A stretch of DNA of 64,000 bases from the NCBI GenBank assembly GCA_945888515.1, contig CAMDAD010000014.1, forward strand, positions 1 to 64,000. Direction: 5' to 3'. The notes under the pieces were generated by a model. It had not been told where the DNA came from. It saw nothing but the letters and a program-made list of their open reading frames with translations, and searched no databases. A program made the translations under genes and the position numbers. The DNA is from Akkermansia muciniphila. Lineage in GTDB: Bacteria; Verrucomicrobiota; Verrucomicrobiia; Verrucomicrobiales; Akkermansiaceae. This document shows positions 6,057-18,700 of this stretch, in pieces (the stretch's first letter is position 1; every line of letters starts with the position of its first letter).

Positions 6057-6482
6057 TTAGGGTTCAGGAGTGGCGGGCGACATCTTGGCCCGCGTGGGCA
6101 TGACCTTGATGCCGAGGCGACTGAGGGCGCCCCAGATCTCCACCATTTTGCCGAAGGGTGCCTTTTCATCGGCTTCGACCTCGAGCGTGCGGTCGGGATT
6201 GAGCTTGCGCCAGGCCTCGAGGTAGGAATCGAGCAGACCTTCCGGCACGGCGGCGCCTTCCAGCGCGAGATTGCCCGTGGCATCGATGGCGAGCACCGAC
6301 ATTTCCGCCATCACGGTTTCGGTGGGCAGATCCTTGGCGGTGGGCAAGGTGATTTGCATTTGGTGGCGCGGGCGCTTGAAGTTGGTGGAGACGATGAAAA
6401 AGATCAGCAGAATGAACAAAATGTCGATCATGGGCACGATCGGCACAGCGGAGTTTTTTTTGACGGGACGGACAAACTGCAT
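6057..6482 (-). CDS. exbD: ExbD/TolR-type biopolymer transport protein
   Basis: About 141 residues when started at the ATG at 6480-6482 (opening MQFVRPVKK), which sits 11 nt after the exbB stop; a longer reading from 6524 would overlap exbB. A single N-terminal membrane helix with VPMIDILFILLIFFIV carries the conserved Asp of the family, followed by a periplasmic domain. By family knowledge ExbD works with ExbB as a proton-driven motor that energises TonB. It is third in a tight tonB-exbB-exbD unit. Confidence 0.93.
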   Translation of the reverse strand: MQFVRPVKKNSAVPIVPMIDILFILLIFFIVSTNFKRPRHQMQITLPTAKDLPTETVMAEMSVLAIDATGNLALEGAAVPEGLLDSYLEAWRKLNPDRTLEVEADEKAPFGKMVEIWGALSRLGIKVMPTRAKMSPATPEP

Positions 6483-6493
6483 GGGTGCGGTGG

Positions 6494-7183
6494 TTAGTGT
6501 TCGGGCGGACGGGCTTTTTGGCAAACATGCACCAGCTTGCTGAGCAGCATTTCCAGTTCCGTGGTGAAGCTCTCAATTTTACGATTGAAAAAACTTTGTG
6601 CAATGACGCAGGGCACGGTAATAGCGAGACCGAAAATCGTGGTATTGAGAGCCACGGCGATGCCCTGAGCGATGCGCTGGGCGTCACTCATATCGCCAGA
6701 TTTGCCCATTTCCTGGAAAAGAAAAGCCAATCCGCTGGCGGTGCCGAGTAGGCCGAGAAGGGGCGAAACGACGATCACGACATCCAGCGCCGTCATGCCA
6801 GTGCTGAGATGCAGCAGCTCGTGTCGGGCGGTGGTTTGCACGGCATCGCTGATGTCCGCTTGCGACTTGCCGCGGTTTCGGACGCACACAGCAGCGAGGC
6901 GGGCGAGGGCGGTTTTACCCTGTTCGAATTCCTTCAGTAGCGGTTCCATGGTTCCATCATCCACGGACTGTTCAAAGCGATTCACCTGGTCGGCCAATAC
7001 AGGCGGGATAATGATGACGCGGCGTAGCGAGAGAACTTTGAACACGATGATGGTGAAGCCCACGAGGAGGCAAAGCAGAAGTGGGTACATAAAGTAGCCA
7101 CCAGCAACAAAGTATTCCCACACCGTCTGCAGGGCGTTCTGGGTGGGTGCGGATGTTTGGGCAAGGGTGAGTAGGAGTGTCAT
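6494..7183 (-). CDS. exbB: ExbB/MotA/TolQ-type proton channel
   Basis: 229 residues with an N-terminal helix (about 27-50), a cytoplasmic loop, and two helices from about 130 on, including SPLLGLLGTASGL and the later TIFGLAITVPCV. This is the MotA/TolQ/ExbB channel signature. By family knowledge it forms the proton-conducting motor with ExbD. The ATG lies 1 nt after the stop of the TonB-like gene, indicating translational coupling. No outer-membrane TonB-dependent receptor is in the window. Confidence 0.94.
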   Translation of the reverse strand: MTLLLTLAQTSAPTQNALQTVWEYFVAGGYFMYPLLLCLLVGFTIIVFKVLSLRRVIIIPPVLADQVNRFEQSVDDGTMEPLLKEFEQGKTALARLAAVCVRNRGKSQADISDAVQTTARHELLHLSTGMTALDVVIVVSPLLGLLGTASGLAFLFQEMGKSGDMSDAQRIAQGIAVALNTTIFGLAITVPCVIAQSFFNRKIESFTTELEMLLSKLVHVCQKARPPEH

Positions 7184-7184
7184 G

Positions 7185-8360
7185 TTAGAAGTAAAAATTG
7201 TAAATCAGTTCGATCGGCTCGTCATCGATTTCGGCTTTGAGTTCGGCGGGGATTGGAGGGATTTTCGCTTGGCGGATGGCGCTGAGGGTGAAGCCTTTTT
7301 GCACCTCGCCAGCATCGACCATCTCGACTACGGAAATGGTGCGGACGGTGCTGTCTGGAGCGATGACGAAGCGCACGGTGAGAATGCCTGGTGTGATGAA
7401 ATCTCGATACTTGGTGCAGTTGCGATGCCACTCGGCTTCCACGACACGACTGAGCGCACTGTGGTAGCGCCCCATGGGGGTATTGGCCACGTTGAGCGCC
7501 GATCGCCCCTTGCGCGTAATGGAGCCGCTGAGTTTTGTTTTGGTTTGATTGCCGCGAAAGCCAGGTTCGTTGGGATCTTGTTTGGGTGTGGGCTTGGGCA
7601 ACTCGGGACGCGTGGTTTCGGCCATTTCTTTGTTTTCATTGGCCGGCTTGTTTGCTGCTTGCGGCTTGAGGGCTTCTTCCTCGGTTTTGGTTCGCTCCAC
7701 GACCTGATCTCCGAGCAGCGTGGGACGGGAATCAGCGGTCATTTTTTTCGGATCCTCGCTCTTGTTTTCCTCTGGCTCGGTGGCCGGGGTGCTGGTCGTG
7801 GGTGGCTCTGTGGCAGCGGTCTTGGTGGGAGACTCGGCCGCAGTGGTGGTCGCGGGAGTAGGCGGCGTAGGCGTAGTCATGGCTTTGGCAAGTTCACTGC
7901 TGTCTAGTTTGCCGTCTTGCAAGCGACTCTCCGTGGTTTCGATTTCGCCAGGGCGACGCGGATCGCGACCGGCCTGGCTGGGCATGTTTGGCGCGCCGGC
8001 GACAGGAATAGCATCGCTGGTGGCCATGGTGTCGCGGTCGCCAATAAAGTCGGCTTTTTCCGGCGGTGCCGATGCCTGATCGCTAGAGGTGCGGGCAAAC
8101 GAGGGGCGCTGTTTTTCCGCGGGTGGAGTCTCCGCTTCGGGCTTGGGTGTGAGCGCTACGGGAGGGGCCATGACGATGACCACCTGCTCTTTCGGTTTTG
8201 GCGCGATTTTGGGACTGTGCTTGGCGAGGAGTTGTGATTGCAGTGCGAGGAAACCTACCACCACCAGCAACGCGAAAGTGATGACCACGGCAATCGCAAA
8301 CGAAAGCAACCAGAGTTGTCGTTCTTTTTCCCATGCGTGAGTTGTATGCGCCGCTGCCAT
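7185..8360 (-). CDS. TonB/TolA-like energy transducer with long low-complexity linker
   Basis: 391 residues from the ATG at 8358-8360 (a GTG at 8369 would add three). A membrane helix at about residues 16-42 precedes a roughly 230-residue linker rich in Pro, Thr, Lys, Glu and Ala that could span the periplasm. The C-terminal domain (last 100 residues, from about RYHSALSRVVEAEW to the terminal IYNFYF) has the TonB/TolA C-terminal look, with LTVRFVIAPDSTV and AIRQAKIPPIP. First gene of tonB-exbB-exbD. By family knowledge it carries motor force to outer-membrane receptors. TolA is the main alternative, but no tolB or pal is nearby. Confidence 0.85.
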   Translation of the reverse strand: MAAAHTTHAWEKERQLWLLSFAIAVVITFALLVVVGFLALQSQLLAKHSPKIAPKPKEQVVIVMAPPVALTPKPEAETPPAEKQRPSFARTSSDQASAPPEKADFIGDRDTMATSDAIPVAGAPNMPSQAGRDPRRPGEIETTESRLQDGKLDSSELAKAMTTPTPPTPATTTAAESPTKTAATEPPTTSTPATEPEENKSEDPKKMTADSRPTLLGDQVVERTKTEEEALKPQAANKPANENKEMAETTRPELPKPTPKQDPNEPGFRGNQTKTKLSGSITRKGRSALNVANTPMGRYHSALSRVVEAEWHRNCTKYRDFITPGILTVRFVIAPDSTVRTISVVEMVDAGEVQKGFTLSAIRQAKIPPIPAELKAEIDDEPIELIYNFYF

Positions 8361-8468
8361 TGGCCGCACTGATTATGAGCGCATTTGTGAGCAATCACAA
8401 GGAATTAGGCGGCGAATTTATGATTTCTTTCTTTGCAAATACGGCCATCAGGCTACAGAATCGCGCCC

Positions 8469-9403: not shown

Positions 9404-10867
9404 ATGAGTCTCCACGCCCAACTCAGCCCGGAAGCGCAAGCCCGCCTTGACGCGATGAAGCGCAATTCGACGATCTCCTCGATCATCATTGCGATCCTAT
9501 CCATCGTCCTCATCGGCCTCCTGCTTGCCTTTATTTTCATCCAGCCTTTCCTCAAGGAAACGCCCGTGATCGTGACCTACAGCGCAAACGTCCCCGCGGA
9601 AGAAGTGCTGGAAACCAAAAAAGTGAGCACCAATACCAAACAAAAACCCTCCGCTCCCTCTTCCTCGAGCGCCAAGGTGATTGCCGCTGCTACGACTTCC
9701 AACGTAGCGATTCCCGTGCCGGAAGTCGATGTGCCACAACCTTCCACGGATTTCGGCAATGGCGATGACTTCGGCGATGGTTGGGGCTCCGGTGGTGACG
9801 GCGGCGGCGGTGGTGGTGGCTTCGGCGCGATCCCTGCGACGATGCGCAAGCGCTGCTCGAAAGAAGACCGCCTACAACGCCTGGCAGAAACCGGCGGCAA
9901 CGAGCAGTGCGAAGAAGCGGTGCTCAAAGCCCTGCGCTGGATGAAAAAAACCCAGAATCCTGATGGTTCTTGGAACGGTCAGAAAAAGTCCGCAATGACA
10001 GGCCTCGGCTTGCTGGCTTATCTCGGCCATTGCGAGACTCCACTCTCGGAGGAATTTGGGGAATCCTGCCTCAAGGCCATGACCTACCTCATCAACTTGA
10101 GTATGAAAAATCAAGGTAAACTCGCCGACTCCGCAGGCGACAAGCACTGGCCCTATGAGCACTCGATTTGCGTTTACGCTCTCGCGGAAGCAACCACTTT
10201 CTGCAAGCAACTGAACATCAGCGTGCCGAATTTAGCGGAAGCTACTCAAAAATCTGGTCAACTTCTGATCGATAATCAACACAAAGGCGGTGGATGGGAT
10301 TATGCCTATGATGAGTCTGGCCCTCGTGGTGGTGACGTTTCCATCGCCGGATGGCATATCCAAGCGCTGAAGGCCATGAAGCATACTGGCTTGGATTTCA
10401 AAAACCTCAGTCGCTGTGCTTCGAAAGGCTTGGCGTATCTGGAAGACAAGCAGGATGACAATGGTGGTTTCGGCTACACAGGGAAAAAGCCGCTCGCTTC
10501 AAAAGGCGGATACTACACACTCACAGGTGTGGGCGTGCTCTGCTTCCAGATGTGGGACAAAGGTTCTTCATCGGAAGTTCGCAAAGGAACCAAGTATATT
10601 AAAAATAACACGAAGCTGAAGTTCGGCACGGCAGACTGCGATTTGTATGCCCACTACTACGAGGCACAGGCGATGATGAATCGCGGTGGCGAGGAGTGGA
10701 AGCACTACAATGGACTGATGCGCGATGAAGTGCTGAAAAACCAGAAGCCCGACGGTACTTGGCACGGCGGTGCAGGTCATGGCGCTGGTGCGTTTTACCA
10801 TACAGCTCTCTGCACGTTGATGCTCGAGGTTTACTACCGCTTCCTGCCCGGCACCAGTCAGCTTTGA
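9404..10867 (+). CDS. Membrane-anchored alpha/alpha-barrel protein (prenyltransferase/squalene-cyclase fold) with TonB-like N-terminus
   Basis: 487 residues. A membrane helix lies at about 23-48. A linker rich in Ser, Ala, Lys and Val follows, with V-P/V-V alternation like TonB proteins, then a Gly/Asp-rich run (about 118-142). The rest (about 165-480) is a repeat domain with the squalene-cyclase/prenyltransferase pattern: repeated NPDGSWNG, DNGGFGY and KPDGTWHGG (QW-like motifs) spaced by helices. Catalytic DxDD is not visible, so a cyclase reaction is not claimed. The barrel would face the periplasm. It is followed by a strong terminator. A sugar- or protein-binding role is possible. Confidence 0.8.
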   Translation: MSLHAQLSPEAQARLDAMKRNSTISSIIIAILSIVLIGLLLAFIFIQPFLKETPVIVTYSANVPAEEVLETKKVSTNTKQKPSAPSSSSAKVIAAATTSNVAIPVPEVDVPQPSTDFGNGDDFGDGWGSGGDGGGGGGGFGAIPATMRKRCSKEDRLQRLAETGGNEQCEEAVLKALRWMKKTQNPDGSWNGQKKSAMTGLGLLAYLGHCETPLSEEFGESCLKAMTYLINLSMKNQGKLADSAGDKHWPYEHSICVYALAEATTFCKQLNISVPNLAEATQKSGQLLIDNQHKGGGWDYAYDESGPRGGDVSIAGWHIQALKAMKHTGLDFKNLSRCASKGLAYLEDKQDDNGGFGYTGKKPLASKGGYYTLTGVGVLCFQMWDKGSSSEVRKGTKYIKNNTKLKFGTADCDLYAHYYEAQAMMNRGGEEWKHYNGLMRDEVLKNQKPDGTWHGGAGHGAGAFYHTALCTLMLEVYYRFLPGTSQL

Positions 10868-10884: not shown

Positions 10885-10915
10885 AAAGGCGATCCAGTCA
10901 CGGATCGCCTTTTTT
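10885..10915 (+). terminator. Rho-independent terminator
   Basis: GGCGATCC (10888-10895), loop AGTCAC, GGATCGCC (10902-10909), then six T (10910-10915). A-rich bases before the stem pair with the T run, so it could act in both directions. It lies 17 nt after the stop of the alpha/alpha-barrel gene and separates it from the serine hydrolase. Confidence 0.92.
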
Positions 10916-15948: not shown

Positions 15949-16485
15949 TCAAGCACGATGCGGTGAATTTGTTAGGATCTGCTGCCAAAGCTGGCTCTCG
16001 CCGGGATGCCCCCAGTGATCTAGTCGTGCGGTGATTTCCGCCGTGCTTAGCTCGGGGCAGGTAGGGTCTCCGGCGAGTTGTGGGCGTGCGGCACAAGCGA
16101 GTGCCCAGACGGCCCAGGCGCGGGTGGCACGGAGTTCTTCTCTCGTGCCGCGGAGTCGGCAGGCCTGGTGCTGGTAGCTGAGGCGCGGGTTGCCGGGAAA
16201 GTCATCGCTGCCATGGTGTTGCAGGATCCAGAAGAGAGCGGCATAGGGTAGGGGCCATGTGCGGAGAATGTCATCCGCCGCATCTACATCGGCATAGAGA
16301 GCACGGGTCAATGCCAGGAGCGCGCGACCAGCGTGACCCTGCAGCCACAGGAAATGTCCATAGCGCAGGGCATCGATGAAAAACGCGGCATCGCGCGCGG
16401 TGCCGTGACGGCGCAGTAACGTGTGGTCGAGCACTTCATCCGCATGAATCGTCGGCAGGAACGGACATGGTTGCGCGGGAGACAT
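15949..16485 (-). CDS. Hypothetical cytoplasmic protein, His/Trp/Leu-rich
   Basis: 178 residues from the ATG at 16483-16485 (a longer reading to 16521 overlaps the divergent gene). Mostly helical, with AAFFIDALRYGHFLW and PYAALFWILQHHGSDDF, and no signal peptide. No family recognised. It converges on the M20 gene and is divergent from the transglutaminase. The long protein-like stretches and consistent codon use support it as a gene. Confidence 0.6.
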   Translation of the reverse strand: MSPAQPCPFLPTIHADEVLDHTLLRRHGTARDAAFFIDALRYGHFLWLQGHAGRALLALTRALYADVDAADDILRTWPLPYAALFWILQHHGSDDFPGNPRLSYQHQACRLRGTREELRATRAWAVWALACAARPQLAGDPTCPELSTAEITARLDHWGHPGESQLWQQILTNSPHRA

Positions 16486-16546
16486 GGCATTGCTTATGCG
16501 CATCTCGTGTCTTGCTTGCAAGGAGATCTTGTGGGATAGTCAAGCC

Positions 16547-18700
16547 ATGGAGGCGAATGCCGCGACTGCTAACGCATCAGCTGTGCGATTCCCGCGTATG
16601 CTGCTGGGAGCGGCACTGATTTTCTGGGGGTGGATGGTGGATCTGCCGTTGGCGGGTTTGGCCTTGGCATTTTTGTTTGAGGGACCGCATTGGTTGCCGC
16701 AGCGTTGGAACTTTGGCGAGACAGCCTACGTGCGTGCTTGGTCGATCTCGGTCATCTCAATGATGCTCACGGCTTTTGTCCTTTGGATGAATGGTGTGGA
16801 GCCCGAGACGGTGCGCGAGTTTGTGTCGTGGATGCCATTGTTTTTGATGACGGTGCAGTTCACGCAGGGTTATGGTTTCGCGGACACGATTCCGTTGAAT
16901 ACGTTCTCGTATTTTTCGCGAAAAAAAATGGCACTGGACCGTGAACTCGGCATGAATCCTGTGTGTCAGCGCATTTCCTTTACGCCGGTGTATTTTGTCG
17001 TGACGCTGCTTTTCTCCGCGGCAGGAAGCAACGCGTATGATGAGTTGTTTTTCGTGGGATTACTTTTGCTAACAGGCTGGTGCTTGTGGACTTGCACGAG
17101 CCTGCGCGCGCGGCAGAAAAAGTCGCTCCTTGCGGGTTTGCTTGTGATGTTTGCTTTAGCCGCGGTAACGCAGTGGGGCTTGCTGCGCGCGCATCAGATG
17201 TTGATGGGGCGAGGGGCTGATGGAGTGGCTACTTCCTCCTTGGGAACGCAGTGGCACCGCAGCAATACGAACATCGGTCATGTGGGGCAGATCAAACAAT
17301 CATCGGAAATATTCTGGCGGCTGCAGCAGGAGCATGGCACCACTCCGGACCTGCTGATGACGGCATCTTACAATCGCTATTTTCCCAGCGGACATTGGCG
17401 CTATGAGCCGCCGCCGGGAAACACGCAGGAGTTGGACTTTAAGGGACTCGCTGCGGTGGGGCGGGCGGATCGAGGCGAGAACGTGGCCGATGATGTGCGA
17501 CTCTATCGCACTACGGGAGAGATCCTTGCAGGCGAGGAAGCGCGCGCGGATCTGCCCCGTTTCCGGTTGGTGGGCCCAGTGAAAACGGACTCGTTGCTGC
17601 CACTTCCGGGTTCGCTCTACTCGCTGTATGTGAACGCGCAAGAGTTGGAATACAATTCGGTGGGCACGGTCCGCATCACCCCGCGCCATGCGGTGGTTGA
17701 GGCTACGGTGCGCTGGGACGGTGGCTTTGATCGCGATGCCGCTCCCTTTGCGATCGAGCCGAAAGAAGAGAGATCGATTGATCTCGATGTGCCGCCGCAG
17801 GAGCGTGCTGTCTTGCGAGAAATTGTCGATTCGTTAGGCCTGTCGGACCTGCCGATGGAGGAAAAAATCGCCGCGGTGCGTTTGTATTTTTACTCGAATT
17901 TCAAGTATTCCACCTACCTCCGTGTGCAAGACCGTCTGACCAGCAAAAGAAAAGCCGAAGAGCGGGGCAATCGTTATCGAACGATGACAGGACGTGACAG
18001 CGCGCTGGCGCAATTTTTGTTAGAAGAAAAACGTGGGCATTGCGAGTACTTTGCCACGGCAACGACACTGTTACTGCGAACGGCAGGAGTGCCTGCCCGC
18101 TATACAGTTGGCTTTTCCGTGCAAGAGCGAAATCCGAGGACGGGCGAGCATGTATTGCGAGGCACGCATGCGCATGCCTGGTGCCGCGTGTGGAATGAGC
18201 AAACCCAGCGATGGCAGAACGTCGACACCACACCACCTTCGTGGATCACGGCGGATCCGGCGATGAGTGGCTGGCGGCGTGATCTGATAGACGCGATGCA
18301 ACGACTGCGCGAAAATTTCACTCTCTGGCGTACGCAACCGGAAAACAGGTCGATGGTGACGACGACGTTTTCCGTGATCGCCGCCTTGGTTGCGGCATGG
18401 GTGATTTTCCGTTTGTGGAAAACGCGCTCGCGTGTGACGCGTCAAGCCAAGTCGAAAGCCCCGGCGCGGCGACACACGCCATTGAGTCAATTGGAGCGAT
18501 GGCTTGTCGGGAAAATCGGTCATCGGCCCGAGGGTATGCCCTACGCCGATTGGTTGCGTCGGTTGGAGTCATCGGGCGATGCCCGACTGGTGACGGAGGC
18601 AATCGATCTGCACAACCGTCTGCGTTATGATCCTTCCGATCCCGAGCCCATGATCATAGAGCGGCTGCAATATCTCTGTGAGGCGATCCGCGCGCGGTAA
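16547..18700 (+). CDS. Membrane transglutaminase-like protein (DUF3488/TgpA type)
   Basis: 717 residues from the ATG at 16547 (an in-frame start at 16484 exists). The first 200 residues are membrane helices; a periplasmic region holds the transglutaminase core with the catalytic triad in KRGHCEYFATA (Cys), THAHAWCRVW (His) and VDTTPP (Asp). One more helix at about residue 620 precedes a cytoplasmic tail. By family knowledge TgpA-like proteins are often beside MoxR and DUF58 genes, which are absent here. Substrate unknown. Its TAA abuts the stop of rfbB on the other strand. Confidence 0.88.
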   Translation: MEANAATANASAVRFPRMLLGAALIFWGWMVDLPLAGLALAFLFEGPHWLPQRWNFGETAYVRAWSISVISMMLTAFVLWMNGVEPETVREFVSWMPLFLMTVQFTQGYGFADTIPLNTFSYFSRKKMALDRELGMNPVCQRISFTPVYFVVTLLFSAAGSNAYDELFFVGLLLLTGWCLWTCTSLRARQKKSLLAGLLVMFALAAVTQWGLLRAHQMLMGRGADGVATSSLGTQWHRSNTNIGHVGQIKQSSEIFWRLQQEHGTTPDLLMTASYNRYFPSGHWRYEPPPGNTQELDFKGLAAVGRADRGENVADDVRLYRTTGEILAGEEARADLPRFRLVGPVKTDSLLPLPGSLYSLYVNAQELEYNSVGTVRITPRHAVVEATVRWDGGFDRDAAPFAIEPKEERSIDLDVPPQERAVLREIVDSLGLSDLPMEEKIAAVRLYFYSNFKYSTYLRVQDRLTSKRKAEERGNRYRTMTGRDSALAQFLLEEKRGHCEYFATATTLLLRTAGVPARYTVGFSVQERNPRTGEHVLRGTHAHAWCRVWNEQTQRWQNVDTTPPSWITADPAMSGWRRDLIDAMQRLRENFTLWRTQPENRSMVTTTFSVIAALVAAWVIFRLWKTRSRVTRQAKSKAPARRHTPLSQLERWLVGKIGHRPEGMPYADWLRRLESSGDARLVTEAIDLHNRLRYDPSDPEPMIIERLQYLCEAIRAR

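What the first reader, a model, noticed from the sequence alone, without database searches (positions are those of the whole stretch)
9404..10867. TonB-like N-terminus joined to a terpene-cyclase-fold repeat domain
The membrane helix and alternating Val/Pro linker look like a TonB-type energy transducer, yet the C-terminal part is an alpha/alpha-barrel repeat protein with QW-type motifs and no visible DxDD. It lies just beyond a tonB-exbB-exbD unit. A periplasmic barrel driven or tethered by an ExbBD-type motor would be new to me.
Basis: partly seen in the sequence, partly recalled or inferred. Interest (0 to 1): 0.6.

Follow-up and report, generated by a model that had tools for sequence, protein, structure and literature searches.

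The report
Motor-arm protein with a cyclase-like barrel
A bacterial inner-membrane protein that looks like the TonB/TolA arms used to pull on the outer membrane carries, at its far end, a barrel shaped like a sterol-making enzyme but without that enzyme's catalytic motif; close relatives sit in one operon with an ion-driven motor, so proteins now labelled 'terpene cyclase' in Akkermansia-like bacteria are probably mechanical parts, not enzymes.

Summary
The ORF (9404-10867, 487 aa) is real. Its model has a TM helix, a disordered linker (51-144) and an alpha/alpha barrel with the squalene-hopene-cyclase fold (Z 26.6); DxDD occurs in 0 of 62 homologues. Residues 1-144 form a mobile module that relatives also carry on VWA and PA14-like domains. 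In sister lineages its helix has the TonB/TolA Ser-x3-His signature. Eight toroid, five VWA and one PA14 gene lie on the same strand within 1.5 kb of exbB-exbD-exbD, mostly with two TPR genes. The VWA form was published in 2025 as a motor-driven force transducer; the toroid form appears new. In the window's family (Akkermansiaceae) most copies lack the His and are not in motor operons. But the genome's motors have mostly also lost the Ser that contacts that His, and its two Pfam-recognised exbBD-linked TonBs lack the His too. A detached operon of the same gene types (exbB, exbDa, exbDb, two TPR genes, one in the Akkermansia 'Mul1B' family) co-occurs with the His-less module, mainly within one genus. 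Best reading: an orphan-encoded transducer arm, probably of that motor, using a His-free contact. A passive tether is the main rival. The neighbouring tonB-exbBD unit is unlikely to be its partner.

The parts
9404..10867 (+). The module+toroid protein, 487 aa (stop included)
9404..9463 (+). Residues 1-20, cytosolic stub MSLHAQLSPEAQARLDAMKR; the most conserved zone of the protein (mean 0.83 over 62 rows)
9464..9553 (+). Residues 21-50, TM helix; TonB/TolA-type His position occupied by Ile here, His in sister lineages
9554..9835 (+). Residues 51-144, disordered linker; 79-144 (KPSAPSSSSAKVIAA...IPVPEVDVP...DFGNGDDFGDGWGSGG) conserved (0.72-0.74) above the folded toroid (0.66)
9836..10864 (+). 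Residues 145-487, alpha/alpha toroid of squalene-hopene-cyclase fold without DxDD; invariant in 62 rows: C151, C210-E211-T212, Y251, D311, S313, W317, Q320-A324, Y415, Y418, Y419, Q422, E475
10886..10911 (+). aaggcgatcc-agtcac-ggatcgcctt hairpin followed by T's just after the stop: probable intrinsic terminator, read by eye; the consensus scan did not list it
   Evidence: sequence; not listed
7185..8369 (-). TonB-like protein P0004 (no Pfam match), TM without His; neighbouring unit, not thought to be part of the same system
6494..7183 (-). ExbB; position of the His-contact Ser is Leu
6057..6524 (-). ExbD

Best explanation
It is an orphan-encoded member of a family of TolA/TonB-type periplasmic transducers: cytosolic stub, one TM helix, disordered linker, and a globular end that is a toroid, a VWA or a PA14-like domain. 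Shown here: descent from a module that in sister lineages has the Ser-x3-His helix and is encoded just downstream of exbB-exbD-exbD, and exchange of the same toroid between His+ motor-linked and His-less N-termini. Inferred: in Akkermansiaceae the arm is still attached to an ExbBD-type motor, most likely the exbB-exbDa-exbDb-TPR-TPR (Mul1-type) motor encoded elsewhere. Contact would be through the conserved cytosolic stub and linker and through a helix contact in which the polar His-Ser pair was lost on both sides. The motor would swing or pull the toroid against an outer-membrane or periplasmic partner, plausibly in uptake of large glycans. The toroid would serve as a binding head, not as a cyclase.
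For: Module on several C-domains within the genome and family. 14 module genes on the same strand within 1.5 kb of exbB-exbD-exbD (8 toroid, 5 VWA, 1 PA14), all His+: His+ 14 of 70, His- 0 of 88. TM His in 59 of 61 modules outside the window's family and 11 of 97 inside it (table). A large and a small TPR gene, exbB, exbDa, exbDb and the transducer in one cluster. Toroid tree: motor-linked His+ toroids L153/L154/L156 lie inside a starred set of 23 rows (20 His-, 3 His+; 98/97) that holds the window copy. Motor covariation: the ExbB Ser that aligns with TolQ Ser28, the contact of TolA His22 (PMC12215075 passages; alignment), is present in 14 of 14 His+ operons, but is I (C20), L (C14), M (C10), F (C1a), A (C1b), S (C16) in 6 of the genome's 7 ExbBs, and L in three orthologues of the window unit. 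His-less module and Mul1B over its cut-off: both in 130, module only 7, Mul1B only 17, neither 24, of 178 genomes. The stub and linker are more conserved than the toroid. Both C20 ExbDs keep the TM Asp (sequence).
Against: The window copy lacks the His, called essential for Tol or Ton activity in PMC12215075 (passages). No His-less copy is in a motor operon (0 of 88). The module/Mul1B association is strong only in one genus (19/0/9/22 of 50); without it p = 0.15. With the large TPR gene as marker it is weaker: in the 35 family genomes, 28 of 28 with the module and 5 of 7 without carry it. No phylogenetic correction was made. The motor-side Ser could be read for only one Mul1-type ExbB (G000). 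The Mul1B model does not clear its cut-off on any of the 10 small TPRs of transducer operons scanned (best L113, 2e-6); the small TPRs matched a homology profile, most at 5e-19 or better, L153, L154 and L156 only weakly. No interaction was tested.
Confidence: 0.5

Rival explanations
1. Passive tether. After the His was lost the module became a plain inner-membrane anchor that holds a periplasmic toroid (or VWA, PA14) near the membrane; no motor acts on it.
For: No His in the window copy; 0 of 88 His-less module genes beside a same-strand motor; signal-peptide-type toroids without the module exist in the same genome and toroids without it occur inside the tree.
Against: A passive tether need not conserve its linker, yet residues 79-144 (0.72-0.74) and stub 1-20 (0.83) exceed the folded toroid (0.66). 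The genome's two Pfam-recognised exbBD-linked TonBs also lack the His, and most of its ExbBs lack the partner Ser. His-less module and Mul1B co-occur.
Confidence: 0.3
2. It is driven by the adjacent TonB-like/ExbB/ExbD unit (6057-8369).
For: The neighbourhood is kept in G000, G005, G009, G006 and, in part, G002.
Against: Opposite strand with two ORFs between; the unit has its own TonB-like protein; exbB is not among the 14 commonest neighbour families of 79 named loci; in the same genus the three tandem toroid genes of G003 (L046) have no exbB or exbD in the 20 kb read.
Confidence: 0.08
3. A membrane-anchored enzyme: terpene/hopanoid cyclase as annotated in Akkermansia, or an alpha/alpha-barrel sugar-active enzyme (GH76-like, epimerase-like).
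For: Fold matches to squalene-hopene cyclases, GH76 mannanases and sugar epimerases; invariant polar residues C151, C210, E211, D311, Q320; expression of A. muciniphila 'terpene cyclase/mutase' genes rose slightly with bile (PMC7671984 passages).
Against: DxDD in 0 of 62; expected periplasmic location behind a TolA-like stub; the same anchor carries VWA and PA14-like domains; 8 toroid genes sit in motor operons.
Confidence: 0.1

Closest known systems
vWA force transducers of Williams-Jones et al. 2025 (PMC12204202, section 8 read in full)
   Same: TMH with SHLS motif + disordered linker + non-TonB globular end, downstream of TPR, tolQ-like and two tolR-like genes in PVC bacteria; our VWA loci L159, L161, L162, L163 and L165 fit that description.
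   Different: Globular end here is a cyclase-fold toroid (or PA14-like); the window copy has no His and no linked motor. The words toroid, squalene and PA14 do not occur in that paper's main text.
TonB / TolA
   Same: Cytosolic stub, single TM helix (Ser-x3-His in sister lineages), disordered Pro-containing linker, periplasmic globular end, ExbB/ExbD partners.
   Different: No TonB_C domain; toroid instead; His absent in the window copy.
Squalene-hopene cyclase family (PF13243/PF13249)
   Same: Alpha/alpha toroid, Z 26.6 to 2sqc_A; QW-like repeats; PF13243 just over its cut-off (27.4 vs 26.1).
   Different: One barrel of about 340 aa, no DxDD in 62 of 62, tethered in the envelope by a transducer-type anchor.
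Akkermansia Mul1 locus (NCBIfam NF052542, 'Mul1B family putative transporter subunit')
   Same: The genome's exbB-exbDa-exbDb-TPR998-TPR339 operon contains it (9.5e-73); Mul1B lies next to a TPR998 match also in G011.
   Different: Its transducer has not been named as far as I could read: the founding paper (Davey et al. 2023) is not held and is recalled only.
GltJ gliding-motor protein
   Same: Recalled as a TonB-like arm driven by an ExbBD-like motor; the TonB-like neighbour P0004 matches it weakly (0.0025).
   Different: No toroid; the match is to the neighbour, not to this protein.

Membership tests
vWA-type force transducers (PMC12204202) | TMH + disordered linker + folded periplasmic end | tested here: met
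   AlphaFold model: helix 9-46, disorder 51-144, fold 145-480
vWA-type force transducers (PMC12204202) | SHLS-type His in the TMH | tested here: not met
   Ile at that position in the window copy; His in 59 of 61 modules outside the family and 11 of 97 inside
vWA-type force transducers (PMC12204202) | VWA globular end | tested here: not met
   Squalene-cyclase-fold toroid; the VWA siblings P0002 and P0003 share the N-module
vWA-type force transducers (PMC12204202) | Gene beside TPR-tolQ-tolR-tolR | tested here: not met
   Not in the window; met by 8 toroid relatives for exbB-exbD-exbD
vWA-type force transducers (PMC12204202) | Motor box in the linker | not testable with these tools
   No complex prediction available; the linker is conserved
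TonB | TonB_C domain (PF03544) | tested here: not met
   two other proteins of the genome have it
Squalene-hopene cyclase | alpha/alpha toroid fold | tested here: met
   2sqc_A Z 26.6, 283 aligned
Squalene-hopene cyclase | catalytic DxDD | tested here: not met
   0 of 62 homologues
Squalene-hopene cyclase | cyclase activity | not testable with these tools
   needs biochemistry
Mul1-type uptake machine | co-occurrence with Mul1B | tested here: inconclusive
   130/7/17/24 of 178; strong within genus g13 only

The most novel reading that the evidence does not exclude
The 'terpene cyclase/mutase' proteins of Akkermansiaceae, including gut Akkermansia, are the moving arms of the Mul1 motor that takes up mucin or other large glycans: an ExbBD-type machine with interchangeable toroid, VWA and PA14 heads that couples to its arms without the canonical His-Ser contact.
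Probability: 0.27. Interest if true: 0.85.

Novelty: new variant of a known kind. Interest (0 to 1): 0.6.

Why it matters
It adds a third and fourth kind of head (toroid, PA14-like) to the newly described non-TonB force transducers. It suggests that genes annotated as terpene cyclases, and used to argue for hopanoid-based bile tolerance in A. muciniphila (PMC7671984, passages), may be parts of an envelope machine. It gives a testable partner for the Mul1-type motor, and a natural experiment in motor coupling: a His-Ser contact lost on both sides.

Tried and rejected
Adjacent tonB-exbBD as cognate motor: rejected as unlikely (see rivals). 'His lost, therefore uncoupled': weakened after the genome's own Pfam-recognised TonBs (L040 15442-16158, L274 10405-11145) proved His-less beside exbBD. 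Active-site geometry of the toroid: not possible, no coordinates in the box. E. coli ExbB Ser34 alignment by single-sequence phmmer did not reach TM1; a profile of 13 of the 14 His+ ExbBs (L121 left out) reached TolQ TM1. Consensus scan for promoters and terminators gave nothing above shuffles. Conserved neighbours of His-less toroids: the commonest was a Gfo/Idh-like oxidoreductase by eye (26 of 79 loci), no motor among the top 14 families. Mul1B model on the small TPRs of 10 transducer operons: below cut-off in all 10. PA14 label: Pfam PF07691 over cut-off in L156, L148, L158 only, of 8 scanned; none for L066; the other members are linked to these by an iterated profile. Literature: 0 papers with ExbD+TonB+squalene+Verrucomicrobia or squalene+ExbD+von Willebrand. 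Rows dropped: 9 linker-only module matches before the His counts; one ExbB of the genome (C4) not aligned. Controls not done: phylogenetic correction of the co-occurrence; the sampled loci favour strong module matches.

Full report
What is there. Window 9404-10867 (+) encodes 487 aa. In the window's own genome (G000, 3.36 Mb, 54 contigs) it has seven matches: itself; an 81% full-length relative on C36 whose first codons lie in another frame; two proteins that share only residues 1-140 and then carry a VWA domain (C15, C10); and three proteins that share only the barrel and begin with signal-like N-termini (C21, C3, C47). So the N-terminal part is a mobile module.

Structure. AlphaFold2 with 62 sequences gave mean pLDDT 79: helix 9-46, disorder 51-144, and a toroid at 145-480 mostly above 90. 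Solved structures: squalene-hopene cyclase 2sqc_A Z 26.6 over 283 residues; sugar epimerases and GH76 enzymes follow, and complement C3 and TEP1 chains appear in the Foldseek list. DxDD occurs in none of the 62 sequences. Mean conservation by zone: stub 1-20 0.83, TM 21-50 0.61, linker 51-78 0.48, linker 79-112 0.72, Gly-rich 113-144 0.74, toroid 0.66. A disordered stretch more conserved than the fold it carries suggests a binding role, not a spacer. The 62 sequences come from the 80 best matches, so close relatives are favoured.

Relatives. A search with residues 1-145 found the module in 42 of 57 relatives' genomes. A profile of 15 module sequences (A2) found it in 121 of 387 genomes of the phylum. 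Named hosts include Luteolibacter, Roseibacillus and Haloferula, with many Akkermansiaceae MAGs. From 140 fetched regions plus the window, 167 module ORFs were collected; 9 linker-only matches were set aside, leaving 158. Their ends are toroid, VWA, PA14-like or unassigned. PA14 is confirmed by Pfam over its cut-off in 3 of 8 scanned members. In f2 and f5 genomes the module is preceded by an extra N-terminal region, with TPR repeats by Pfam in L094.

The TonB/TolA signature. In sister lineages the helix reads, for example, SLLIHAGLL (L113) or VAILIHALII (L101); TolA, as printed in PMC12215075, reads ISAVLHVILFAALIW (passages). His is at the same column in 13 of 15 rows of A2; the exceptions are L105 and the window. 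By a pattern test, His is present in 59 of 61 modules outside the window's family and in 11 of 97 inside it (table). Of 70 His+ modules, 14 have a same-strand exbB or exbD within 1.5 kb; of 88 His- modules, none (Fisher 5e-6; the sample is not random and rows are related). The 14 are 8 toroid (L113, L121, L128, L129, L131, L153, L154, L156), 5 VWA (L159, L161, L162, L163, L165) and 1 PA14 (L158). L113 also has a second tandem toroid beyond that distance.

The operon. Around these genes lie a large TPR gene (about 860-1070 aa), a small TPR gene (about 300 aa), exbB, exbDa, exbDb, then the transducer, sometimes followed by a PA14 transducer (L154, L156); the order was read by eye and differs in places. 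That is close to the arrangement described for vWA force transducers in PMC12204202 (section 8). In the window's genome the same gene types form a detached operon on C20: exbB, exbDa, exbDb, TPR998, TPR339. exbDa and exbDb match the first and second exbD of the transducer operons in order. TPR339 matches NCBIfam NF052542, 'Mul1B family putative transporter subunit', at 9.5e-73. In G011 the Mul1B match lies next to a TPR998 match. The genome has 7 ExbB and 8 ExbD matches in all.

Loss of the contact on both sides. Cryo-EM work reports that TolA His22 contacts TolQ Ser28, and TonB His20 contacts ExbB Ser34 (PMC12215075, passages). A profile of 13 His+ ExbBs aligns their invariant Ser with TolQ Ser28: Ser30 of chain 9kpz_A, which is numbered two higher than 8odt_A. 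That Ser is in 14 of 14 His+ operons. In G000 the position is I in the Mul1-type ExbB (C20), L in the window unit (and in three orthologues L041, L043, L044), M (C10), F (C1a), A (C1b) and S (C16); the seventh ExbB was not aligned. The two Pfam-recognised TonBs of the genome (C10, C1a) and the window's TonB-like protein have no TM His. So in this genome His-less arms and Ser-less motors go together, and lack of the His does not by itself mean uncoupling.

Exchange of the toroid. In a tree of 79 toroids the motor-linked His+ toroids of G015, G021 and G027 fall inside a starred set of 23 rows (20 His-, 3 His+; 98/97) that holds the window copy; at least five label changes are forced by starred branches. 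Their N-modules resemble those of f4. The simplest reading is that the same toroid has been recombined onto both kinds of anchor. Long branches elsewhere in the tree make deep joins unsure.

Co-occurrence. In 178 genomes of the family (at least 90% complete), the His-less module profile (E <= 1e-6) and Mul1B over its cut-off are both present in 130, module only in 7, Mul1B only in 17, neither in 24. The signal comes mainly from genus g13 (19/0/9/22); without it p = 0.15. In the 35 family genomes, the large TPR gene is present in 28 of 28 with the module and in 5 of 7 without it, a weaker contrast. No correction for shared ancestry was made.

Consequence for annotation. PMC7671984 (passages) lists five further A. 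muciniphila genes as 'terpene cyclase/mutase family protein', two pairs of them consecutive in numbering, and links them to hopanoids and bile tolerance. G167, a single contig of 2,664,102 bp (the size of A. muciniphila MucT, recalled), carries two tandem module+toroid genes at C1:1345801-1347857 and Mul1B at C1:641901-642863. That these are two of the genes named in that paper is likely but was not checked by locus tag. PMC11790493 (passages) states that large sections of mucin are imported. The Mul1 paper itself (Davey et al. 2023) was not readable here and is recalled.

Verdict. Descent from a TonB/TolA-type transducer module: about 0.85. Still motor-driven: about 0.5. Driven by the Mul1-type motor in glycan uptake: about 0.27. 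Kind: new variant (toroid end, His-free coupling) of the force transducers published in 2025.

Noticed in passing
L104:8602-11691 (-), L111:7686-10790 (+): About 1030-aa proteins with signal-like N-terminus, VIT domain, VWA domain, the Gly-rich linker tail and the same toroid in one chain.
   Followed up: partly
L088:7440-10496 (-), also L092, L093, L095, L096, L106, L107, L110, L115: Large VWA proteins (L088 is YfbK-type by Pfam) carry the conserved linker motif (KPSAPSSSSAKVIAA...DFGNGDDFG), most of them without the module's TM: the linker itself is mobile.
   Followed up: partly
L002 (G000:C36:8517-9974): Full-length 81% relative whose first 12 codons (MSLHAQLSPEAQ) lie in a different frame from the rest: pseudogene or assembly error.
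   Followed up: partly
L094, L108, L112, L116: In f2 and f5 genomes an extra N-terminal region, with TPR repeats by Pfam in L094, precedes the module, so it would lie on the cytosolic side.
   Followed up: no
L272:7582-13656 (G000:C20): Detached exbB-exbDa-exbDb-TPR998-TPR339 (Mul1B) operon in the window's genome.
   Followed up: yes
L005:54-2511 (G000:C21), L007:1411-3767 (G000:C47): Stand-alone toroid genes on C21 and C47 directly follow genes for long Gln/Ala-rich or coiled-coil-like proteins with similar C-termini.
   Followed up: no
window 16484-18700 (+): Membrane transglutaminase-like protein (PF01841, 2.9e-16) near the finding.
   Followed up: no
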